Of a stretch of DNA of 60,734 bases, positions 50,130 through 60,718 are shown one piece after another (position 1 is the stretch's first letter; every line of letters starts with the position of its first letter). Position numbers and translations under genes: made by a program. Under the pieces are notes generated by a model that ran no database searches, was not told the DNA's origin, and saw nothing but the letters and a program-made list of their open reading frames with translations. Where the stretch lies: the NCBI GenBank assembly GCA_036504895.1, contig DASXUJ010000103.1, forward strand, positions 1 to 60,734, read 5' to 3'. This stretch comes from Syntrophorhabdaceae bacterium. GTDB taxonomy: Bacteria > Desulfobacterota > Syntrophorhabdia > Syntrophorhabdales > Syntrophorhabdaceae.

Positions 50130-51587
50130 ATGCAAATCAAGAATGAGCTTGCAAAGATTGTAGGCAACGATTACGTCAGTGACAGCATGAAGGATCGCGA
50201 GAAATATTCGCGGGATTACAGCCTCCTTCCTCCCGGCCTCCCCGATGCCGTAGTATGGCCCGGAAGCTCCGAAGAGGTAGGTAAGATTGTAACATGGGCA
50301 AACGAAAAGGATATTCCCGTCGTCCCGGTAAGCTCCGCGGTCCATTTTCACGGCAGCAGCATACCGAAGCAGGGCGGCCTTGTCGTCGACCTTAAGAGAA
50401 TGAACAAGATTTTTGAAATCGACACTGACAACCGTCTGGTAAGGTTCGAGGCGGGCGTCACGTGGGAACAGCTCACCAAAGAGCTGGCCAAGAAAGGCCA
50501 CAGGGTAATTATGCCGTTGCTTCCCCATGGAGAACGGTCCGTGCTTACCGATACATTGGAGAGGGAAGTGCCCACCAATATCGTGTATGATTACGGCGAG
50601 CCCATGCAGTCGATCGAAGTCGTATGGCCTACCGGTGAATTGTTCAGATGCGGCTCCGCAAGCGTAAACGGATTTCCCGATTCAAAATCAAGAGGCGCCA
50701 ATCCTTCCGGACCCGGCCTCGATTTCTACAGGCTTTTTCAGCAGGCCCAGGGAACCATGGGAATCGTTACCTGGATGAGCTTGAAAATGGAGACAATCCC
50801 CACCATGGACAAGATCTTCTTCGCGCCGGTCTATGATCTTGAATATGCAATCAATTTCCTTTACAGGATCCTTCCCAGAAGGATCGGTCAGGAATGTCTG
50901 CTGTTGAACAATGTAGACCTCGCGGCTATCGCGGCCGACGCTTCGGGTGAAGATTTCGACGAACTGAGAGCGAAGCTTCCCCCCTGGGCCCTCATTCTCA
51001 CTATCAGCGGTCTCGTAAGAAGGCCGGAAGAGAAGCTCGCCTATGAAGAGAAGTTCCTTACCGATGTATTGAAAAATGAGTTCCCGAAAATGGGTCTCAC
51101 CGACAACCTGCCCGGTTTTCCCGGACTCGGCCGTAAGCTGATGCCCATGCTCAGGGCGCCGTGGCCGACGGACGTGCCTTACTGGAAGAACAGTGTGAAG
51201 GGTGGATGTCAGAACCTTTTCTTCATTACGAAACCGAATCGCGTGCCCATGTTCATGGAAGTCATGGAGCTCGTGGCCTCGAGATACGATTATCCTATGG
51301 GCGAGATAGGAAGCCACATTCAGCCTATCGAGCACAACAGGGCCTGCCAGGTAGAGTTCAGCTTTTTCTATGATGCCGATGACGCAGAGGAAAAAGAGCT
51401 TGTGGCAGCAATATATAAAGACGCAGCAACAGCGCTGTTCAACGAAGGCGCATTCTTTTCAAGGCCGTATGGAGTCCTTGCCCCCATGGTTTTCGACAAG
51501 GCCGCAGGATATACGGCAGCTTTAAAACGGGTGAAGAAAGTCGTCGATCCGAAGAACGTTCTCAACCCCGGAAATTTGGTCTTCTAA
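50130..51587 (+). CDS. FAD-linked oxidase (GlcD/VAO superfamily)
   Basis: Flavoprotein of 485 residues with an FAD_binding_4 domain (AVVWPGSSEEVGKIVTWANEKD; PVSSAVHFHGSS) and the FAD-linked oxidase C-terminal domain ending VDPKNVLNPGNLVF. The group includes D-lactate and glycolate dehydrogenases and vanillyl-alcohol/p-cresol-type enzymes that oxidise alpha-hydroxy acids or para-alkyl phenols. The start follows AAGGAGG. It is followed by a CCG iron-sulfur protein, the usual electron acceptor of such flavoproteins in anaerobes, and by a second flavoprotein. Substrate unknown; the neighbouring molybdenum hydroxylase makes an aromatic or aldehyde pathway conceivable. Confidence 0.88.
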   Translation: MQIKNELAKIVGNDYVSDSMKDREKYSRDYSLLPPGLPDAVVWPGSSEEVGKIVTWANEKDIPVVPVSSAVHFHGSSIPKQGGLVVDLKRMNKIFEIDTDNRLVRFEAGVTWEQLTKELAKKGHRVIMPLLPHGERSVLTDTLEREVPTNIVYDYGEPMQSIEVVWPTGELFRCGSASVNGFPDSKSRGANPSGPGLDFYRLFQQAQGTMGIVTWMSLKMETIPTMDKIFFAPVYDLEYAINFLYRILPRRIGQECLLLNNVDLAAIAADASGEDFDELRAKLPPWALILTISGLVRRPEEKLAYEEKFLTDVLKNEFPKMGLTDNLPGFPGLGRKLMPMLRAPWPTDVPYWKNSVKGGCQNLFFITKPNRVPMFMEVMELVASRYDYPMGEIGSHIQPIEHNRACQVEFSFFYDADDAEEKELVAAIYKDAATALFNEGAFFSRPYGVLAPMVFDKAAGYTAALKRVKKVVDPKNVLNPGNLVF

Positions 51588-51597
51588 GGAGGGAAAA

Positions 51598-52914
51598 ATG
51601 CCAAGCGATCGCTATGATACACCAAAAACACCAGTAGATCTTGATATAAGGAAACTGGATACTTTCAGGTATGACATGGACCATTGCATCAAGTGCAAAG
51701 GCTGCTATTGGGTCGAGCATACCTACATGCCGGGCGTGAATTGGTCGGTACGATGCCCGAGCAATTACTGGAACGATTTCGACTCTTATGGAGCTTTCGG
51801 TAAGATGAGAATAGGTCTCGGCATTATCGATAAGAAGCTGGAGTGGACCCCGAAGCTCCTCGAAATAGTCTACGCAGATCCTCTATGCGGCGCGTGCGAC
51901 GTAGCCTGCAAGCGTAACCTCGACCTTGAAATAGGTCTGACCCTCGAGGCTATGAGAGTAAGGGCAGTGCAGGACGGCGCGGGCCCGATGCCGGCGCACA
52001 AAGAGATTGCCAAGAACATCGCCACCAAACATAATCAATTCGGCGCTCCCCACGAGAACAGAAAGAAATGGATCACAAAAGACATCAAGGTTGCCGACAA
52101 AGCGGACATGCTCTATTTCGTCGGTTGTTCCGCCTCCTACAGACACCCTGAGATCGCGAAGGCGACGGCGAAGATCTTCAACGCCTCCAAAACGCCCTTC
52201 ATGCTGATGGCAGATGAGTGGTGCTGTGGAAATACCCTCTCCTCCGTCGGTATGCTCGACGAGGCCAGGGAGTTGGCGAAACGCAATATCGAAGCAGTAA
52301 AGGCATCAGGAGCGAAAAAAGTCGTATTGAGCTGCGCGGAAGGCTACCGCATGTGGAAAGTAGATTACCCGAAGCTCCTCAACATCAACACGGCAGACCT
52401 CGGTTTTGAGGTAATTCATCTGGTAGAGTTCGCCGATGCGGCAATCAAGGCCGGTTCGTTGAAACTCACCAAGCCCGTGGACGTACGATTTACCTACCAT
52501 GATTCCTGCGGCGTGAGCAGACTTGCCGATCCGTGGATCGAATGGAAAGGCACCCGGGGCTGGATGGGCTGTGTGGAGCCCGAACTGAAGAGAAGGCGCG
52601 GGACCAAGGGTCTCTATATCCAGACGAGAGACATCCTGAATGCCATACCCGGCGCAAAATTCGTCGAGATGCCCAGGACGAGAGAGAATGCGTTCTGCTG
52701 TGGAGCAGGCAGGGGGACCATGGAGGCCTATCCTGATCTCGCCTCAGTATCGGCAAAACACAGGATCGATGAAGTGAAGCATGTGAGTGCCGAGGCCGTC
52801 GTGGCCGCGTGTCCATGGTGCAAGAGCAATTTCTCCCAGGCAGTCAAAGAGAATGGCGACAGCGTGAAAGTAATGGATATTGCGGAGCTCATATCTGCCG
52901 CAGTTGAATTATAA
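51598..52914 (+). CDS. CCG-domain iron-sulfur protein (GlcF/HdrD-like)
   Basis: Protein of 438 residues with an N-terminal iron-sulfur region and two CCG-type blocks. CIKCKGC and a distant CP form the first site with an unusually long spacer; PLCGACDVACK forms the second. CCG block one is FVGCSASYR, EWCCGN and LSCAEGY (the usual CPxC is altered). Block two is complete: HDSCGVSRL, FCCGAGRG and CPWCKSN. It probably takes electrons from the two flanking flavoproteins and passes them to an Hdr- or quinone-linked acceptor. The start has AGGAGG. No membrane segment is seen. Confidence 0.88.
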   Translation: MPSDRYDTPKTPVDLDIRKLDTFRYDMDHCIKCKGCYWVEHTYMPGVNWSVRCPSNYWNDFDSYGAFGKMRIGLGIIDKKLEWTPKLLEIVYADPLCGACDVACKRNLDLEIGLTLEAMRVRAVQDGAGPMPAHKEIAKNIATKHNQFGAPHENRKKWITKDIKVADKADMLYFVGCSASYRHPEIAKATAKIFNASKTPFMLMADEWCCGNTLSSVGMLDEARELAKRNIEAVKASGAKKVVLSCAEGYRMWKVDYPKLLNINTADLGFEVIHLVEFADAAIKAGSLKLTKPVDVRFTYHDSCGVSRLADPWIEWKGTRGWMGCVEPELKRRRGTKGLYIQTRDILNAIPGAKFVEMPRTRENAFCCGAGRGTMEAYPDLASVSAKHRIDEVKHVSAEAVVAACPWCKSNFSQAVKENGDSVKVMDIAELISAAVEL

Positions 52915-52925
52915 GGAGGAAGGCT

Positions 52926-54536
52926 ATGAGTATAGTGAAAGCAGCTTACAATGCAATAGAGCAGGTAGTCGGGGCTAAATATATCTCCGAAGATCCGGCA
53001 CTGTGTGAAGGCTACCGCTCAGGGCCCGGAGGCTACGAGAGCGGTCTCGGATATGAGCGGGTCATGACCACCATTCCTCACGCGGTGGCATTACCGAAGA
53101 CAACCGAAGATGTACAGAAAATCGTAAAGATATGCAACCGGTATAAAGTTCCTTACGTACCGTACGCGACAGGTTTCTATGGCCCCCGTTCACACTGCCA
53201 TGTCGAAAACGAGCTTCTTATCGACCTGAAGAGACTCAATGACTTCGAAATCGACGAGAAACATTTCTGCATCAATGTCGGCGCAGGCGTGATCTACTCC
53301 CCGATCCAGCAGGAGTGCCTTAACAAAGGCGCTTATGTAGTTATCGGCGGCGGCGGCGCGCAGGCATCGGCGATCGCCAACCTGCTGGGCGACGGTTGGT
53401 CCCCTCTGAGCCACAGGATCGGCCTTCCCCACAGGCGTATTCTCGGAACTGAGCTCGTTCTGCCTGACGGCGAGCTGGTCAAGATGGGTTCCCTGGCGAA
53501 CGGTGACGACCCCTTCTGGGGCGACGGACCGGGACCGGACCTGAGGGCGATACTCAGGGGTTTCACGGGAGTCCGCGGCTGTCTCGGTATCGTGACGAAG
53601 ATGGCAATAAAGACCCTGCCCTTCCAGCCGGAGCCGCTCGTTCCCACGGGGATCTCTCCCAATACGGGACTTGCGCTGCCCACCAACCGCGTGAAATGGA
53701 TCAACTATCAGGTGCCGAGCAAGGCAGACCAGGTAAAGGCCATGTTCGAGGTGGGAAAGGCAGAGATTGCCGGCGCCATCACGAAGGTGCCTCTCTTCTG
53801 GCGCGCTATCAACAAGGCGGAGTGCAAGGAAGAGTTCTGGCAGTTGTGGGGCAAGGAGAACGAGGATACGATCAAGAATTTCTTCATCGTCCGCGTCCTT
53901 CTTATCGGCTACACCTCGGAAGAGCAGATGCAGTATGACGAAAACGTATTGAATGACATCATGGCCGAATGCGGCGCAGTACCCAGAGCAACGAGACCCC
54001 TCGATGAGTCGTGGATCAAGAATGCCGACTCCGCGGGTATGTGGCTCATGTGCGGTTCCTACGTGTCGGTCGATTATATTATCGAGTCTCTCTCTCAGGC
54101 GACGACTCATGGCGAAAGCTATGCGGAGACCAAGAAGAGATATACTCCGCCCCTTATGCCCGATTACGGCGATCCGGGCTGGTTCCAGAGCTTCGAGTGC
54201 GGCCACCAGGGATACTCGGAATTTCTCGTCTACTGGGATCAGGATGAGGACACCAACGGCGTCGACCAGTTCTATCTCGAAACCTCTAAGATGAACATCA
54301 GGGAGCGGTTCTATACCTCCCTGCTCGGACCTCACCAGCCCATGTACCTCACGGGCCCGATGTACGGACCGAATTACCACCAGTGGATGCTCAAAATAAA
54401 GGACGAATTCGATCCTCTGTGGGTATGCCATCCGCCGGTACCTCTGGCGCATGACGAGTTTGTGGACCGCGCCGAGTGGATGAAACCCATGAAGGACTGG
54501 GAAGCCCCGAAAGAGCTCCCCATGCCCAAGTGGTAG
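52926..54536 (+). CDS. FAD-linked oxidase (second, VAO-like)
   Basis: Flavoprotein of 536 residues, related to but longer than the 50130 product. The FAD_binding_4 domain reads ALPKTTEDVQKIVKICNRYK and YVPYATGFYGPRSH, with the pyrophosphate site IGGGGAQASAIANLLGDG. The substrate region (GVDQFYLETS; GPMYGPNYHQWMLKIKDEFDPLW) resembles vanillyl-alcohol/p-cresol-type enzymes in length, but I cannot confirm covalent-FAD residues by eye. The ending is rich in Trp and Pro. It closes the three-gene operon before a terminator. The two flavoproteins may be isoenzymes or a heterodimer; an aryl-alkyl oxidation is only a hypothesis. Confidence 0.85.
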   Translation: MSIVKAAYNAIEQVVGAKYISEDPALCEGYRSGPGGYESGLGYERVMTTIPHAVALPKTTEDVQKIVKICNRYKVPYVPYATGFYGPRSHCHVENELLIDLKRLNDFEIDEKHFCINVGAGVIYSPIQQECLNKGAYVVIGGGGAQASAIANLLGDGWSPLSHRIGLPHRRILGTELVLPDGELVKMGSLANGDDPFWGDGPGPDLRAILRGFTGVRGCLGIVTKMAIKTLPFQPEPLVPTGISPNTGLALPTNRVKWINYQVPSKADQVKAMFEVGKAEIAGAITKVPLFWRAINKAECKEEFWQLWGKENEDTIKNFFIVRVLLIGYTSEEQMQYDENVLNDIMAECGAVPRATRPLDESWIKNADSAGMWLMCGSYVSVDYIIESLSQATTHGESYAETKKRYTPPLMPDYGDPGWFQSFECGHQGYSEFLVYWDQDEDTNGVDQFYLETSKMNIRERFYTSLLGPHQPMYLTGPMYGPNYHQWMLKIKDEFDPLWVCHPPVPLAHDEFVDRAEWMKPMKDWEAPKELPMPKW

Positions 54537-54590
54537 GAAGTTGCTGAGAAAGATATCGGCATGAGCCGGTAGAGCACCTTACGTTCTGAG

Positions 54591-54625
54591 ACTGGGCAGG
54601 CTTCTCATCAATGGGCCTGTCCAGT
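54591..54625 (+). terminator. Terminator of the FAD-oxidase operon
   Basis: An 11-bp stem with one G-T pair (54591-54601 and 54615-54625) is followed by TTTCTT. Confidence 0.8.
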
Positions 54626-54655
54626 TTTCTTGAGCGTCAGACCGCCGCGAGAGTA

Positions 54656-54675
54656 CTGTTCATAATTATGAACAG
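54656..54675. promoter_or_regulatory. Perfect 20-bp palindrome, likely operator
   Basis: CTGTTCATAATTATGAACAG is a perfect inverted repeat with no spacer. It is centred about 42 bases upstream of the -35 box at 54705, a common place for an activator. I find no equal site elsewhere in the window and cannot name the regulator. Confidence 0.7.
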
Positions 54676-54704
54676 AAAGTTATGGAAAGGGATTACAAAA
54701 TTAC

Positions 54705-54734
54705 TTGATATACGGATAAAACATATTGTATACT
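54705..54734 (+). promoter_or_regulatory. Promoter of the molybdenum hydroxylase operon
   Basis: TTGATA (54705-54710), 18 bases and TATACT (54729-54734). It is about 124 bases before the first small gene. Confidence 0.65.
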
Positions 54735-54857
54735 CAAAATGCCGGGTGAATTCGGGTGCCTAATATAACAACGGAAACAGCGGCGGAAGACAAGCCGATA
54801 TTATAAATTGGGTTCAAATTAGACACAATAAAGTATGCGTTTGAAGGAGGTGACAAG

Positions 54858-55118
54858 ATGACAAAAGTTTCAACTGCCTGCCCATTTTCAAGCCGGTCGT
54901 GCCGTGAGTGCCCGATCTATATCGGCAGGCACTCACAGCTTTGTATTGCAGCGCGATATCAGAACGGAGTGAAGCCGAAGCCCACGTATGGGTGTACCCA
55001 TCTGAAATTCGAGTTTCCTTCGGAACTCGTGTACAGCGAGAAACGATGCACAAACCTTGAAGACAGAGATGAAAACCTCAATGAAGCAAAGATAGTATGG
55101 AAAGGCGAAAAAACGTGA
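54858..55118 (+). CDS. Small Cys-rich protein, unknown function
   Basis: An 86-residue protein with six cysteines in a tight pattern: CPFSSRSCRECPIY, LCIAARYQ, YGCTHL and RCTNL. This could hold a zinc or iron-sulfur site. It has no signal peptide or membrane span. The ribosome site AAGGAGGTGA (54844-54853) is an unusually perfect anti-Shine-Dalgarno match, so translation should be high. It stands first in the molybdenum hydroxylase operon. A role in cofactor handling or as a small electron carrier is conceivable, but I do not recognise the family. Confidence 0.75.
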   Translation: MTKVSTACPFSSRSCRECPIYIGRHSQLCIAARYQNGVKPKPTYGCTHLKFEFPSELVYSEKRCTNLEDRDENLNEAKIVWKGEKT

Positions 55119-55223
55119 CCTACAGGTATTAGTCCCCGGACATTCCGGTTTGCCCGTTCGGACTATTCAAAAATGACGAAGTACAGCTGAGGACAGCGAA
55201 AGTCTTATGGAAAGGAGATAAGC

Positions 55224-56093
55224 ATGATACATGATTTTACGTACCTTAAACCCGGCACGGTTCAGGAAGCCCTGGCCATGCTCACCGACCACGTGGATGA
55301 CTGTAAGATTATCTGCGGCGGCCAGTCACTTCTTATCGTCATGCGGCAGGGCCTTATCGTAGTGAACTACCTGATCGACATCAAGGGATTGAAAGAACTT
55401 GATTACATCAAGTACGACGACAAAGAGGGCCTCAAAATTGGCGCAACGACGACCCACAGATCCATCGAATTCTCAAAACTGCTGAAAGAGAAGTACCCGA
55501 TCCTGCCAAAAATGGAAGAAAGGCTCGCCTCTACGCAGACCCGTAACTGGGGAACAATCGGCGGCAACCTTGCTCACGCCGATGCGGCCGGCGACCCGGC
55601 TCCCGTTCTCATTACTCTTGGCGCAAAAGTAAAGGTAGCATCCAAGAAGGGCGAGAAGGTTTATGATCTCGGAGAGTTCTACACCGACCTGTTCGAATCA
55701 GCCATGGAACATGACGAAATGATCGTCGAAATCCAGGTTCCTCCTATGGCCCCGAAGACCGGCTGCGCATACAAGAAGTTCAACCTCCTCCAGAACGACA
55801 TGGGCGTTGTGGGTGTGGCTGCGAAAGTGACGGTCGATGCAAGCGGAACCATCACTGACGCAAGAATCGTTCTCGGTAACGCAGGCGTGACCCCGATCCG
55901 TGCGACAAGCGCAGAGAAGGTTCTCATCGGAAAGAAACCCGATGACGCAATTTTTGCAGCGGCCGGAGAAGCAGCAGGCGCCGATGCAGACCCTGTGTCC
56001 GATATCCACGCGTCCGACGACTTCAGGCGCCACCTGATCAAAGTCCTGTCTAAGCGCATGGCAAAGCAGGCCTGGGAACAGGCAGTGAAATAA
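55224..56093 (+). CDS. Molybdenum hydroxylase FAD subunit (CoxM-like)
   Basis: Medium subunit, 289 residues, that binds FAD. The first FAD site is KIICGGQSLLIVMRQGL, the second TRNWGTIGGNLAHADAAGD. The C-terminal CO-dehydrogenase-flavoprotein domain runs to the end. It lacks the roughly 40-residue insert with four cysteines that carries the extra [4Fe-4S] cluster of 4-hydroxybenzoyl-CoA reductase, so electrons should flow the usual way, out to an acceptor. AAAGGAGATA precedes the ATG. Subunit order (M, S, L) and tight spacing show a single enzyme. Confidence 0.92.
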   Translation: MIHDFTYLKPGTVQEALAMLTDHVDDCKIICGGQSLLIVMRQGLIVVNYLIDIKGLKELDYIKYDDKEGLKIGATTTHRSIEFSKLLKEKYPILPKMEERLASTQTRNWGTIGGNLAHADAAGDPAPVLITLGAKVKVASKKGEKVYDLGEFYTDLFESAMEHDEMIVEIQVPPMAPKTGCAYKKFNLLQNDMGVVGVAAKVTVDASGTITDARIVLGNAGVTPIRATSAEKVLIGKKPDDAIFAAAGEAAGADADPVSDIHASDDFRRHLIKVLSKRMAKQAWEQAVK

Positions 56094-56114
56094 GGGTAGG
56101 GAGGCATAGACGAT

Positions 56115-56600
56115 ATGGAAAAATATGAGATAAAGTTATCAGTCAATAAAGTGGAATATGAGATTTACATCAACCCCAAGACTCTTCTCGTCGAGGCTAT
56201 CAGGGATTTCATAGGCCTTACGGGAACGAAGAGGGGTTGTGAGACGGTCTCCTGCGGCGCATGCACCGTGCTGGTAGACGGCGCTGCGGTCAAGGGATGC
56301 TCAGTGCTTGCCATGCAGTGCATAGGCAAGGAGATCACCACGTCCGAGGGTCTCGAGACGAACGGCAAGCTGGCTCCGATCCAGAAGGCCTTTCTCGACG
56401 AGGGCTCCTATCAGTGCGGTTTCTGCACATCCGGTATGCTCATGGCAACTACCGGGCTGTTGAACGAGACCAAGAACCCTTCACCCGACGAAATCAAAGA
56501 AGCTATTGAAGGAAATATCTGCCGCTGCACAGGTTACAATAGTATAGTTCGTGCTGTCGAGCGAGTGGCAAAAGGTATGTACAAGGAGGATTCACTATGA
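56115..56600 (+). CDS. Molybdenum hydroxylase 2[2Fe-2S] subunit (CoxS-like)
   Basis: Small subunit of 161 residues with both [2Fe-2S] clusters: the plant-type N-terminal site GCETVSCGACTVLVDG...GC and the helical C-terminal site CGFCTSGM and CRCTGY. It links the molybdenum and FAD subunits. Its length equals that of the small subunit of 4-hydroxybenzoyl-CoA reductase, but also of many aldehyde and CO-type enzymes. The last four bases overlap the large-subunit gene. Confidence 0.95.
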   Translation: MEKYEIKLSVNKVEYEIYINPKTLLVEAIRDFIGLTGTKRGCETVSCGACTVLVDGAAVKGCSVLAMQCIGKEITTSEGLETNGKLAPIQKAFLDEGSYQCGFCTSGMLMATTGLLNETKNPSPDEIKEAIEGNICRCTGYNSIVRAVERVAKGMYKEDSL

Positions 56601-58906
56601 CAACCACGAGTCTAGCGAAGGAAAAATTACACGTTATTAATACTCACGTCCACAATATCGACGGTTGGGCGAAGGTAACGGGCCGCGCCACATACAGCTT
56701 TGACGTAAAGCTGCCCGGTATGCTCTATGGAAGAATCCTCCGGAGCCCCCATCCCCACGCAAAGATATTGAAGATAGACGCAAGCAAAGCCCTCGCCATG
56801 AACGGCGTAAAGGCTGTAGTTACCGGAAAGGACACCCTCGGCGTAAAACAGGGTATCTGGCGTCGGTTCAACGAGCTCTGCGATGAGCAGATCCTTCCTG
56901 TAGAGAAGGTCCGCTACATCGGCGAGCCGGTATGCGCAGTCGCAGCGACGACTGACGAGATCGCAGAGAAGGCCCTCGACCTCATCGAAGTAGAGTATGA
57001 GGTTCTCGAAGGCGTATTCGAGCCTTATGAGGCAATGAAGAAAGGCGCCCCCGAGCTTCACGACGGCGTCGAGAGAAACATCAACGTCACCCGCCACATC
57101 GAGTGGGGCGATGTTGAGACCGGATTCGAAAAAGCAGACTACATCAGGGAAGACCACTTCTTCTGCGGCGGCCAGGCACATATGTGCATGGAGACAAGAG
57201 CGGCAGTAGCAAGCTTCACCCCTGACAAGAAACTCACCATCTGGCACTCAAACCAGTCCGCATATTATATGCAGGGCCTTATGGCAGGCGTTCTCGGCAT
57301 GAGAGAGGGCGACATCCGCGTGATCGCACAGTACGTGGGCGGCGGGTTCGGCGGTAAGTTCGAGCTCGACGGCGCAATCTTCTGCTCCTCCATCCTCAGC
57401 ATGAAGACTTTCAGGCCTGTAAAAGTTATCTATTCAAGGGAAGAAGACTTCATCGCTTCCAAGCGCAGGACCCCCATGCACTACTGGGTCCGCACCGGCG
57501 TCTCCAAAGACGGTAAGTTCCTCGCCCGTGAGTCCAGGGTCGTGAGCAACGGCGGCGCATACACCGGTATGGGCGCAACAGCTCTCTACCTGACGGGTTT
57601 CTTCCACTCCTTCCCCTACAGATGGGGCGGATACCGTTATGACGGCTACAGGGTTTACACCAATACCCTTCCGTCAACCTCCATGCGCGGATTCGGCGCA
57701 CCTCAGGCCCTGTTCTGCTCCGAGCAGCAGCTCGAGTGGATCGCCAACGACCTCAAGCTCGATCCGATCGAAATGAGGCGCCAGAACGGTCACTATGCCG
57801 GCTACGAAGTCCCGGGCCAGGCATTTATCGCAAGCTGCGGTCTTGACGAAGCCTTCACGATCATGCAGGAATGGCTCGACAAGAAGAAAGCGGGCGGCCT
57901 GCCTGCCAACAGAGGTCTCGGCTTCTCGGCTGCGGGTTTTATGTCAGGCGGTATCTTCAACTGGTTCGACACACCCTATTCATTCTCGTCAGCAGTAGTA
58001 ACCATCAACCAGGACGCGACCGTTGAGCTTCATATCGGCGCTACCGAAATCGGCCAGGGCTCGAACACCACGATGGCAATCATCGCGGCAGAGACCCTCG
58101 GAGTAAAGGTTGAGGACATCAAAGTACACTCAGGCGACACCGACCATTGCCCGGCTGACCTCGGCGCATGGGGTTCCAGACAGACCCTCATGACCGGTAA
58201 TGCCACGAAGAGGGCATGCGAGGATGCAAAAAACCAGCTTCTCGAGTTCGCACTCGCGAAGATGGGCCTGAACATCGTGTATGACCTGGACATCGCAGAT
58301 CGCTGGGTACATATCGTAGCCCGTCCGGAAAGGGGCATGCCCTTTGAAGAACTGGTAAAGATTGCACTTCGCGGCAAAGACGGCCAGAGGATCGTCGGCA
58401 GGGGCTACTACACTCCTCACCGGAAGGGTATGATCTCCCCTGCGTACAGCTACATGCTTCAGGGCGTCGAAATCGAAATCGATCAGGAAACCGGAAAGAT
58501 CGACCTGATCGACAGCCTTACCGCGCATGACTGCGGCACTCCCATCAACCACCTGGGCCTCATCGGCCAGTTGGAAGGCGCCTTCTCGATGGCAGCCGGC
58601 TATGGCTACCTCGAGTACATGCCGTATGAAGATGGCAAGCTCATGAACCCGAACCTGGTCGACTATAAGATGATCAGGGCCACGGAAATGCCTCCTACCC
58701 CGATCGCCGAGATCGACACCTACGAGCCGGAAGGTCCCTACGGTGCGAAGGAAGCAGGCGAAGGTCTGACCAACCCGACGGCAGCCGCCATTGGGAACGC
58801 AATCTTCAACTGCCTCGGAATCCAGATGAAGGAATGCCCGATCAGGCCGCATATGGTCGTGGAAGCCCTCAGGGAAAAAGCTGAGAAAGAGAAAGCAGGG
58901 AAGTAA
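56597..58906 (+). CDS. Molybdenum hydroxylase large catalytic subunit
   Basis: Molybdopterin-binding subunit of the xanthine-oxidase family, 769 residues. It has GGGFGGKFE near the cofactor, the RGFGAPQ loop at about residue 365 that CO dehydrogenases replace with a selanylcysteine loop, GATEIGQGSN, and the catalytic glutamate loop GPYGAKEAGEG. It is therefore not a CO dehydrogenase. Typical substrates are aldehydes, N-heterocycles and aromatic CoA esters. The start follows AAGGAGG and overlaps the small subunit. No XdhC/CoxF-type maturation gene is seen in the window. Substrate unknown; an aromatic aldehyde or CoA ester would suit the setting (inference). Confidence 0.94.
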   Translation: MTTTSLAKEKLHVINTHVHNIDGWAKVTGRATYSFDVKLPGMLYGRILRSPHPHAKILKIDASKALAMNGVKAVVTGKDTLGVKQGIWRRFNELCDEQILPVEKVRYIGEPVCAVAATTDEIAEKALDLIEVEYEVLEGVFEPYEAMKKGAPELHDGVERNINVTRHIEWGDVETGFEKADYIREDHFFCGGQAHMCMETRAAVASFTPDKKLTIWHSNQSAYYMQGLMAGVLGMREGDIRVIAQYVGGGFGGKFELDGAIFCSSILSMKTFRPVKVIYSREEDFIASKRRTPMHYWVRTGVSKDGKFLARESRVVSNGGAYTGMGATALYLTGFFHSFPYRWGGYRYDGYRVYTNTLPSTSMRGFGAPQALFCSEQQLEWIANDLKLDPIEMRRQNGHYAGYEVPGQAFIASCGLDEAFTIMQEWLDKKKAGGLPANRGLGFSAAGFMSGGIFNWFDTPYSFSSAVVTINQDATVELHIGATEIGQGSNTTMAIIAAETLGVKVEDIKVHSGDTDHCPADLGAWGSRQTLMTGNATKRACEDAKNQLLEFALAKMGLNIVYDLDIADRWVHIVARPERGMPFEELVKIALRGKDGQRIVGRGYYTPHRKGMISPAYSYMLQGVEIEIDQETGKIDLIDSLTAHDCGTPINHLGLIGQLEGAFSMAAGYGYLEYMPYEDGKLMNPNLVDYKMIRATEMPPTPIAEIDTYEPEGPYGAKEAGEGLTNPTAAAIGNAIFNCLGIQMKECPIRPHMVVEALREKAEKEKAGK

Positions 58907-58938
58907 GACTAATACCTAATGCCTAAAGGAGGTATACA

Positions 58939-59172
58939 ATGGCAATAGAATTAAAATTTAAATGTCCTGTTTGCGGCAAGCAGTATGAGATAAGCCTGCA
59001 GGCAGCACGCCATATATTCGGAACGGGCGACAAGAAGCACCGTGACTGGGTGGATGCACAGGGCGTAAACTTCAAAGACCTTCTGGTCGAGCAGGCCCTG
59101 AATCCCGGTAATGCCAGCTATCAGATCGTAGCCGATCTCGTTGAGAAAGCACAGGCAAGCCTGAAGAAGTAA
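58939..59172 (+). CDS. Small zinc-ribbon-like protein, unknown function
   Basis: A 77-residue protein with one CPVCGKQYE motif at the N-terminus (a single pair, so possibly a half site in a dimer), followed by a charged helical part. It has an AAAGGAGGT ribosome site and is in line with the molybdenum hydroxylase genes and the CoxG-like gene. It may aid assembly of that enzyme; no family is recognised. Confidence 0.7.
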   Translation: MAIELKFKCPVCGKQYEISLQAARHIFGTGDKKHRDWVDAQGVNFKDLLVEQALNPGNASYQIVADLVEKAQASLKK

Positions 59173-59209
59173 GGAAAGAATCAGTCATTTTTGAATAGAG
59201 GAGGCTTTC

Positions 59210-59662
59210 ATGTTAATTGAAGGTGGATTCACACTCAAAGCACCGATCGAGAAGCTGTATGATTTCCTTATGCAGCCTGAGACCGTGATGACCTGCATAC
59301 CCGGTACGGAATCGGTGAAGGTTATCGACGATAAGAGCTTTGAAAGCGTAGTGAAACAGCGCGTAGGCATCATCTCGGTAAAGCTGAAGTTCGTCACGAA
59401 GACGGTAAAGGCCGAGAGACCTACGTATGCCCAGTTTGAGGGCGAAGGCGAGGACATGACGAAGCTTGGACACTTCAAGCAGAAAACCGAGCTTTTCCTC
59501 AAAGAAGTCGCTCCCGGCGAAGTCGAGTTCTCCTATAAAGTCGATGTGGCTATCGTAGGAAAGCTGGCAATGTTCGGCGACCGTGTCATGAAGCAGAAAG
59601 CAAAAGATACAGAGAAGGTTTTCACCGCCAACCTGCAGGAAAAACTGAAGGCAATGGCATAA
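59210..59662 (+). CDS. CoxG-like SRPBCC protein
   Basis: A 150-residue protein of the CoxG/SRPBCC (START-like) family: GGFTLKAPIEKLYDFLMQPE opens the fold and the helix-grip pattern continues with VMTCIPGTESVKV and GKLAMFGDRVMKQKAK. CoxG proteins accompany molybdenum hydroxylases; in CO dehydrogenase it helps attach the enzyme to the membrane or bring quinone to it. Here it is the last gene before a terminator. GAGGAGG precedes the ATG. Confidence 0.88.
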   Translation: MLIEGGFTLKAPIEKLYDFLMQPETVMTCIPGTESVKVIDDKSFESVVKQRVGIISVKLKFVTKTVKAERPTYAQFEGEGEDMTKLGHFKQKTELFLKEVAPGEVEFSYKVDVAIVGKLAMFGDRVMKQKAKDTEKVFTANLQEKLKAMA

Positions 59663-59690
59663 CAGGACCTTTTCAAAAAGGCCGTTAAAA

Positions 59691-59724
59691 GAGGGTTTCC
59701 CGAAAGGGAGACCCTCTTTTTTTT
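59691..59724 (+). terminator. Strong terminator of the molybdenum hydroxylase operon
   Basis: An 11-bp stem (59691-59701 and 59706-59716, one G-T pair) with a GAAA tetraloop is followed by eight T residues: a textbook intrinsic terminator. Confidence 0.95.
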
Positions 59725-59756
59725 CAACCCTTTCTCCTGGAAAGGCGGCTCATCTG

Positions 59757-59786
59757 TTGATTTGATGTGGTAGTGATATGTAGAAT
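59757..59786 (+). promoter_or_regulatory. Candidate promoter of folD
   Basis: TTGATT (59757-59762), 18 bases and TAGAAT (59781-59786), 53 bases before the folD start. A second TATAAA at 59794-59799 lacks a -35 partner. Confidence 0.5.
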
Positions 59787-59839
59787 GATATGGTATAAAA
59801 CGGTACGGGAACGGACCCCCATACCCCAAAGGAGCAACC

Positions 59840-60718
59840 ATGACCGCACGCATCATAAAAGGCGCCGAGATCGCCGAAGAGATCCGGGAAGAGATAAAGA
59901 GGGACACCCTGCTCTTACGGCAGACCCATGGCATCACCCCGGGTCTCGTCACCATTATCGTGGGCAAGAACCCCGCCTCGATAAGCTACGTCTCGGCCAA
60001 GCAGAAGACCGCCCATGACCTCTTATTTCATTCAGTCCAGGAGGACCTCCCCGAAGACGTCACCGAGGAAGGGTTGCTCGCCCTCGTAGCGCGCTATAAC
60101 CGCGATCCCCTCATCCACGGCATCCTCGTGCAGTTGCCCTTGCCTCCCCATATCAACGAGACAAAGATCCTTTATGCCATTAACCCCGATAAGGACGTAG
60201 ACGGCTTCCACCCGGTCAACATGGGCAAGCTCATGATAGGGGAGGGAAGGTTCTACCCCTGCACCCCTTACGGGATTCGCGAGATGCTTATCCGGAGCAA
60301 TATACCCATCCCCGGCTCTGAAGTCGTGGTCGTAGGCAGAAGCAACATTGTAGGCAAGCCCATCGCCATGATGCTCATGCAGAAGGGCCCCCATGCCAAT
60401 GCCACGGTCACCGTATGCCATACCGCCACCAGGGACCTCGCCTTCCACACGAAAAGAGCCGACATCCTGATCGTTGCCGCGGGCAGGCCTAAAGCCATTA
60501 CTGCCGACATGGTAAAGGTTGGGGCGATAGTCATAGACGTGGGGGTGAACCGGATCGGCATGACCCCGGAGGGAAAGGCGAAGCTCGTGGGGGATGTGGA
60601 CTTCGAGGGAGTCGCGGAAAAGGCATCGGCCATTACCCCTGTTCCCGGCGGGGTAGGGCCCATGACCATCACCATGCTCATGCTCAATACCCTGAACGCG
60701 GCACAGCCTATATTATAA
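59840..60718 (+). CDS. folD: Methylenetetrahydrofolate dehydrogenase/cyclohydrolase FolD
   Basis: Bifunctional FolD of 292 residues. It converts methylene-THF to methenyl-THF with NADP and then to formyl-THF. The folate site has YVSAKQKTAHDL, with the catalytic YxxxK, and VQLPLPPHI. The dinucleotide site has VVVGRSNIVGKPIAMML and ends with PVPGGVGPMTITML. In anaerobes it also serves the Wood-Ljungdahl methyl branch. GGAGCAACC precedes the ATG. The next gene starts 13 bases later, so it may be the first gene of an operon. Confidence 0.97.
   Translation: MTARIIKGAEIAEEIREEIKRDTLLLRQTHGITPGLVTIIVGKNPASISYVSAKQKTAHDLLFHSVQEDLPEDVTEEGLLALVARYNRDPLIHGILVQLPLPPHINETKILYAINPDKDVDGFHPVNMGKLMIGEGRFYPCTPYGIREMLIRSNIPIPGSEVVVVGRSNIVGKPIAMMLMQKGPHANATVTVCHTATRDLAFHTKRADILIVAAGRPKAITADMVKVGAIVIDVGVNRIGMTPEGKAKLVGDVDFEGVAEKASAITPVPGGVGPMTITMLMLNTLNAAQPIL

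What the first reader, a model, noticed from the sequence alone, without database searches (positions are those of the whole stretch)
54858..59662. Molybdenum hydroxylase operon with two small unknown proteins and CoxG
Beside M, S and L subunits the operon has an 86-residue six-Cys protein with an exceptional ribosome site, a 77-residue CPVCGK protein and a CoxG-like protein. The FAD subunit lacks the extra cluster of 4-hydroxybenzoyl-CoA reductase and the large subunit lacks the CO-dehydrogenase loop, so this is neither of those enzymes. The two small proteins could be new accessory or electron-carrier factors.
Basis: partly seen in the sequence, partly recalled or inferred. Interest (0 to 1): 0.7.

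Follow-up and report, generated by a model that had tools for sequence, protein, structure and literature searches.

The report
Conserved molybdenum-enzyme cassette with zinc-finger partner
A six-gene cassette, found in at least four phyla of mostly uncultured anaerobes, encodes an uncharacterised molybdenum hydroxylase-type enzyme together with its own small zinc-finger-like protein, a small four-cysteine protein and a CoxG protein; its substrate is still unknown.

Summary
The operon is real and correctly placed. Six genes (54858-59662) run co-directionally and end at a strong terminator (59687-59720). It belongs to a conserved cassette, not a local oddity: six-M-S-L-cpv-coxG occurs in nearly all Syntrophorhabdales genomes searched and in Desulfomonile-like bacteria, Aminicenantes, Bacteroidota and Dehalococcoidia. 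[quoted passage not shown] The 77-aa protein follows L in 56 of 57 testable loci. In 30 genomes it occurs exactly once per cassette, twice only where L is duplicated. It is predicted to be a C2H2-type zinc finger plus helices (pLDDT 91), so an electron carrier is unlikely. The 86-aa protein keeps four, not six, conserved Cys and has relatives outside the cassette. The FAD subunit lacks the 4Fe-4S insert of 4-HBCR; an insert-bearing beta subunit lies elsewhere in this genome. Known menaquinone genes are missing from 27 of 30 cassette genomes, weakening a CoxG-menaquinone route. Most likely: a new molybdenum hydroxylase subfamily acting on an aromatic or acyl-CoA-linked substrate, with cpv as dedicated partner of L. 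Substrate, reaction direction and electron acceptor are not established.

The parts
54858..55118 (+). 86-aa 'six' protein, four conserved Cys (CP[FI]Sx3CxxCx[IV]YRGRHxxxC), first gene of the operon
   Evidence: no Pfam/NCBIfam hit; upstream of M in 43 of 47 testable loci
55224..56093 (+). M subunit, FAD-binding, without the 4Fe-4S insert of 4-HBCR beta
   Evidence: Pfam PF00941/PF03450; alignment with insert-bearing beta subunits; best PDB matches 7dqx, 4zoh, CutM
56115..56600 (+). S subunit, two [2Fe-2S] domains
   Evidence: Pfam Fer2, Fer2_2
56597..58906 (+). L subunit, molybdopterin-binding, catalytic Glu722, Gln193, Arg364
   Evidence: Pfam; PDB best 1rm6_A 4-HBCR alpha; clade 100/100; motif alignment
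58939..59172 (+). 77-aa 'cpv' protein, predicted C2H2-type zinc finger plus helices, immediately downstream of L
59210..59662 (+). CoxG-like SRPBCC protein, 150 aa, the COXG domain alone
   Evidence: Pfam PF06240 1.8e-17, residues 5-146 of 150; within 4.5 kb of L in 35 of 37 testable loci
59687..59720 (+). intrinsic terminator closing the operon
   Evidence: fold -25.8 kcal/mol, z -4.5, followed by a T run
50130..54536 (+). upstream module FAD_binding_4 / CCG Fe-S / FAD_binding_4 (VAO/PCMH-type flavoproteins), often linked to the cassette but not obligatory
   Evidence: present in 13 of 30 cassette genomes; adjacent in Syntrophorhabdales and Dehalococcoidia

Best explanation
The operon encodes a distinct, uncharacterised subfamily of the xanthine-oxidase family: an (L-M-S) molybdenum enzyme with its own accessory proteins. 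By family rules (inferred), L holds a molybdopterin cofactor, probably the cytosine dinucleotide form (MCD), and most likely hydroxylates an aromatic or acyl-CoA-linked substrate. Electrons pass to the two [2Fe-2S] clusters of S and then to FAD on M. The cpv protein is a dedicated partner of L, most likely a zinc-stabilised assembly factor or small structural subunit. The 86-aa protein is a Cys4 metal-binding accessory. CoxG is a hydrophobic-ligand (SRPBCC) protein that docks the enzyme at the membrane or handles a hydrophobic substrate or acceptor. Shown: gene set, conservation, clade, missing 4Fe-4S insert, 1:1 L-cpv pairing. Inferred: zinc, MCD, direction of reaction, roles of the accessory proteins, substrate class.
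For: Cassette in 61 loci from several phyla. L clade 100/100 on a long branch, sister to 4-HBCR-like enzymes. cpv after L in 55 of 57 testable loci, 56 with L138, whose cpv lies just past L; exactly one cpv per genome in 29 of 30, two where L is duplicated (L140 in G206). cpv and L distances track each other (Spearman 0.90 over 44 loci). None of the nine other Mo-hydroxylase loci of this genome has six, cpv or coxG. cpv model pLDDT 91, matching zinc fingers by profile. Gln193 (XDH-type GGQxH) where 4-HBCR has Val, and catalytic Glu722 kept. MocA-like and XdhC maturation genes beside the cassette in L126. Aromatic context: VAO-type flavoproteins, UbiD, CoA ligases.
Against: L is nearest to a reductase (4-HBCR). 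Gln193 is Met in L146. Neighbouring catabolic genes differ between phyla, so the substrate class is weakly supported. No direct evidence of protein contact between cpv and L. The model of the 86-aa protein is poor (pLDDT 65). The tree holds only three characterised references.
Confidence: 0.5

Rival explanations
1. A variant 4-HBCR-like enzyme that works reductively: it removes a phenolic hydroxyl from an aromatic acyl-CoA or similar compound, taking electrons through FAD without the extra 4Fe-4S cluster, as the NADH-using urolithin dehydroxylase Ucdh may do.
For: 4-HBCR alpha is the best PDB match by 150 bits; L is sister to 4-HBCR alpha; shared IGQGSNT and GAKEA-EG motifs. Ucdh, 32.7% identical to 4-HBCR, dehydroxylates with NADH (PMC12771579). 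A putative 4-HBCR was annotated in a Dehalococcoidia single cell (PMC4959651; not verified to be this clade).
Against: Gln193 is XDH-like whereas 4-HBCR has Val; M lacks the cluster that 4-HBCR uses; the genome carries another 4-HBCR-type beta subunit with the insert.
Confidence: 0.28
2. A quinone-linked dehydrogenase like Mo-CO dehydrogenase, with CoxG shuttling menaquinone to the enzyme.
For: CoxG is almost always in the cassette; CoxG is described as a menaquinone-binding protein delivering electrons from Mo-CODH (PMC13240472, citing Kropp et al. 2025) and as a membrane anchor for G3PDH (PMC11962113).
Against: 27 of 30 cassette genomes have neither MqnA/MqnD nor MenD over cut-off, including 14 of the 15 best-quality genomes; this CoxG is only 150 aa, all of it COXG domain, with no room for a membrane extension.
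Confidence: 0.15
3. cpv and/or the 86-aa protein are regulators: cpv a single-finger DNA-binding protein controlling the operon, the 86-aa protein a sensor domain.
For: cpv matches C2H2 zinc fingers; 86-aa-like domains lie at the N-terminus of longer proteins of about 200-225 aa in other Desulfobacterota that read like receiver-domain proteins.
Against: cpv sits inside the operon directly after L, is duplicated with L, and tracks L divergence most closely; a single finger rarely gives specific DNA binding on its own (general knowledge).
Confidence: 0.15

Closest known systems
4-hydroxybenzoyl-CoA reductase (HcrABC, 1rm6)
   Same: Three-subunit XO-family architecture; L 35% identical to the alpha subunit; shared IGQGSNT and GAKEA-EG motifs; likely MCD cofactor
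   Different: No 4Fe-4S insert in M; Gln193 instead of Val; 86-aa, cpv and coxG genes in the operon; separate clade
Mo-CO dehydrogenase (CoxLMS + CoxG)
   Same: LMS subunits and a CoxG gene
   Different: L lacks the Cys-containing active-site loop, is 30% identical, and lies in another part of the tree
Urolithin C dehydroxylase Ucdh (Enterocloster bolteae)
   Same: 4-HBCR-like XO-family enzyme of an anaerobe
   Different: Sequence not held here, so not compared; no six/cpv/coxG cassette mentioned in the passages read
DUF5810 (PF19126) and C2H2 zinc fingers
   Same: 30 of 35 cpv homologues match DUF5810 (best 1.1e-8); CxxC...H...H pattern
   Different: The window protein itself is below the DUF5810 cut-off; DUF5810 has no known function
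N-terminal domain of the Sulfolobus TENA/THI-4 protein SSO2700 (4lqx)
   Same: Covers 61 residues of the cpv model (Z 7.7, rmsd 2.5); weak profile hit (E 0.32)
   Different: Z below 8 is not decisive; no TENA domain here

Membership tests
Xanthine oxidase (molybdenum hydroxylase) family | LMS subunits with MoCoBD, FAD_binding_5 and two [2Fe-2S] domains | tested here: met
   Pfam hits above cut-offs for all three subunits
Xanthine oxidase (molybdenum hydroxylase) family | catalytic Glu in the GxKxxGEG motif | tested here: met
   Glu722, invariant in the cassette members aligned
4-hydroxybenzoyl-CoA reductase | alpha subunit over the TIGR03194 cut-off (994.55 bits) | tested here: not met
   650.5 bits
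4-hydroxybenzoyl-CoA reductase | [4Fe-4S] insert with four Cys in the beta subunit | tested here: not met
   insert absent in M; cassette M lengths almost all 287-299 aa
4-hydroxybenzoyl-CoA reductase | reduction of 4-hydroxybenzoyl-CoA with ferredoxin | not testable with these tools
   needs enzyme assay
Aerobic Mo-CO dehydrogenase | Cys-bearing active-site loop of CoxL (AxxCSFR type) | tested here: not met
   L has SMRGFGAP where CoxL 8uem has AYACSFR
CoxG family (PF06240) | COXG domain over cut-off | tested here: met
   63.8 bits against 22.2
CoxG family (PF06240) | menaquinone binding | tested here: inconclusive
   not measurable; menaquinone genes missing from 27 of 30 genomes
C2H2-type zinc finger (cpv) | CxxC plus two His in hairpin-helix geometry | tested here: inconclusive
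   invariant C9, C12, H25, H34; model pLDDT 91; zinc-finger matches; His spacing longer than usual and no metal data
DUF5810 (cpv) | PF19126 score over 26.9 bits | tested here: inconclusive
   window protein 17.1 bits, below the cut-off; 30 of 35 homologues match at E up to 0.1, best 1.1e-8

The most novel reading that the evidence does not exclude
A new class of molybdenum hydroxylase in which a small zinc-finger protein is an obligatory subunit or assembly factor of the catalytic subunit, carrying out a so far unknown step in anaerobic aromatic breakdown in sediment and subsurface bacteria of several phyla.
Probability: 0.35. Interest if true: 0.75.

Novelty: new variant of a known kind. Interest (0 to 1): 0.5.

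Why it matters
The cassette is close to universal in the Syntrophorhabdales genomes searched and recurs in Aminicenantes and Dehalococcoidia, groups that are largely uncultured and whose carbon sources are debated. A dedicated partner for the catalytic subunit would be a new ingredient in molybdenum-enzyme biogenesis or structure, where XdhC-type chaperones are the known helpers. It also cautions against annotating such operons as 4-hydroxybenzoyl-CoA reductase or CO dehydrogenase and inferring pathways from that.

Tried and rejected
Selenocysteine: TGA flags in two paralogous L genes were only their terminal stops. A six-DUF35 fusion in L141 is an assembly gap, not a fusion. AlphaFold of the 86-aa protein gave pLDDT 65 and nothing in PDB. 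Rfam: no RNA element in 54300-60000. The sigma-70-like site at 54705-54734 is no better than chance for the region. The first L tree held three wrong-frame rows and was rebuilt without them. Foldseek gave no match of cpv below E 1e-3. Literature searches found no description of the cassette in the held papers; subscription papers, including the S. aromaticivorans UI genome paper and Kropp et al. 2025, could not be read.

Full report
The observation. Window 54858-59662 holds six co-directional genes: an 86-aa protein ('six'), M, S, L, a 77-aa protein ('cpv') and CoxG. Gaps are 105, 21, -4, 32 and 37 bases, and the unit ends in a strong hairpin with a T run at 59687-59720. Pfam and NCBIfam identify M, S, L and CoxG; the two small proteins have no curated family above cut-off. 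The 86-aa gene has a full AAGGAGGTGA ribosome site, but only the nearest relatives share that strength. Both small genes are under purifying selection where dN and dS could be computed, for example cpv dN 0.04 and dS 2.4 between two Aminicenantes.

Conservation. Searches of 198 related genomes found cpv in 43, once per genome, and six in 49; where the surroundings were mapped, cpv lies in the same operon. A scan of 84,980 species genomes with the L alignment returned 61 loci: Syntrophorhabdales, Desulfomonile-like bacteria, Aminicenantes, Bacteroidota and Dehalococcoidia. Gene mapping shows six-M-S-L-cpv-coxG in most, and six-coxG-M-S-L-cpv in the Dehalococcoidia. Where flanking sequence allows a test, cpv follows L in 55 of 57 loci (56 with L138, whose cpv starts just past L), six is upstream in 43 of 47 and coxG nearby in 35 of 37. 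L130 is the one clear loss of cpv. In 30 cassette genomes the cpv profile finds exactly one copy in 29 and two in G206, where L itself is duplicated and each L has its own cpv. None of nine other Mo-hydroxylase loci of the window's genome has any of the three accessory genes.

Phylogeny. 25 cassette L proteins form one clade with support 100/100 on a long branch, next to 4-HBCR alpha and two other L proteins of this genome. The window's L is 59-95% identical to clade members and 35% to 4-HBCR alpha, 30% to CoxL and 28% to quinoline oxidoreductase. A Bacteroidota copy (L126) groups with Aminicenantes, and L138, titled deltaproteobacterial, groups with Dehalococcoidia and has their gene order, which suggests transfer of the whole cassette, though contig misassignment in metagenome bins cannot be excluded.

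Not 4-HBCR, not CODH, by the tests available. L reaches 650 of 994 bits for TIGR03194. M lacks the insert with four Cys that carries the extra cluster; another locus of this genome (C106:6636-7595) has a beta subunit with it. L keeps the catalytic Glu722 and Arg364 and has the XDH-type Gln193 where 4-HBCR has Val; one divergent member (L146) has Met. It has SMRGFGAP in place of the Cys-bearing loop of CoxL. Kinship to 4-HBCR means reductive chemistry stays open: a 4-HBCR-like enzyme, Ucdh, removes a phenolic hydroxyl using NADH (PMC12771579).

The small proteins. cpv has invariant C9, C12, H25, H34 and the motif ARHxxGxGDxxHxxW. AlphaFold gives a confident model (pLDDT 91) of a hairpin plus four helices. 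Profile searches match C2H2 zinc fingers and, for 30 of 35 members, the unknown family DUF5810. The best structural match is the N-terminus of Sulfolobus SSO2700 (4lqx; Z 7.7, rmsd 2.5, 61 residues), not decisive. The 86-aa family keeps four Cys (C8, C15, C18, C29) and a YRGRH motif; its model is poor. It is not exclusive to the cassette: a 74% identical orphan copy lies at C19:21218-21472, and related domains begin longer, receiver-like proteins elsewhere (judged by eye, not scanned against Pfam).

CoxG and electrons. CoxG is described as a menaquinone-binding protein linking Mo-CODH to the quinone pool (PMC13240472, citing Kropp et al. 2025) and as a membrane anchor (PMC11962113). But 27 of 30 cassette genomes lack MqnA/MqnD, and none has MenD over cut-off. 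Draft genomes can miss genes, but 14 of the 15 best-quality ones agree. A ligand-handling or anchoring role, or another acceptor, is therefore more likely than menaquinone in most of these organisms.

Substrate. Evidence is indirect. An upstream FAD/CCG/FAD module related to vanillyl-alcohol oxidase and p-cresol methylhydroxylase lies beside the cassette in Syntrophorhabdales and Dehalococcoidia, and occurs in 13 of 30 cassette genomes. CoA ligases, UbiD, RACo and TRAP transporters appear near some copies. Aminicenantes copies instead neighbour an ADP-forming acyl-CoA synthetase and a sodium symporter. An aromatic or acyl-CoA-linked substrate is the best guess, no more.

Verdict. A conserved, uncharacterised subfamily of molybdenum hydroxylases with a dedicated zinc-finger-like partner: a new variant of a known kind. 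The gene set and its conservation are well shown; chemistry, metals and roles are inferred.

Noticed in passing
window 50130-54536: FAD_binding_4 / CCG Fe-S / FAD_binding_4 module related to vanillyl-alcohol oxidase and p-cresol methylhydroxylase; its last protein is 71-93% identical across Syntrophorhabdales and Dehalococcoidia, and the module is often beside the cassette.
   Followed up: partly
G000:C106:3842-7595 (L185): A 4-HBCR-type enzyme with the 4Fe-4S insert in beta, whose L subunit has GAKESGMS where the catalytic Glu motif is expected; genes that look like acyl-CoA dehydrogenases lie beside it.
   Followed up: partly
G000, ten loci: The window's genome encodes ten molybdenum-hydroxylase large subunits, a rich set.
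   Followed up: partly
L025, L026, L036, L039, L043: Domains like the 86-aa protein form the N-terminus of longer proteins that read like receiver-domain (response-regulator-like) proteins in other Desulfobacterota.
   Followed up: no
L004:9219-9473 (G000:C19:21218-21472): An orphan 74% identical paralogue of the 86-aa protein, away from any Mo-hydroxylase, upstream of a gene that looks like a multicopper oxidase.
   Followed up: no
L126:2978-6398: FmdE, DUF364, MocA-like and XdhC genes lie between the cassette and a second 4-HBCR-like enzyme in a Bacteroidota genome.
   Followed up: partly
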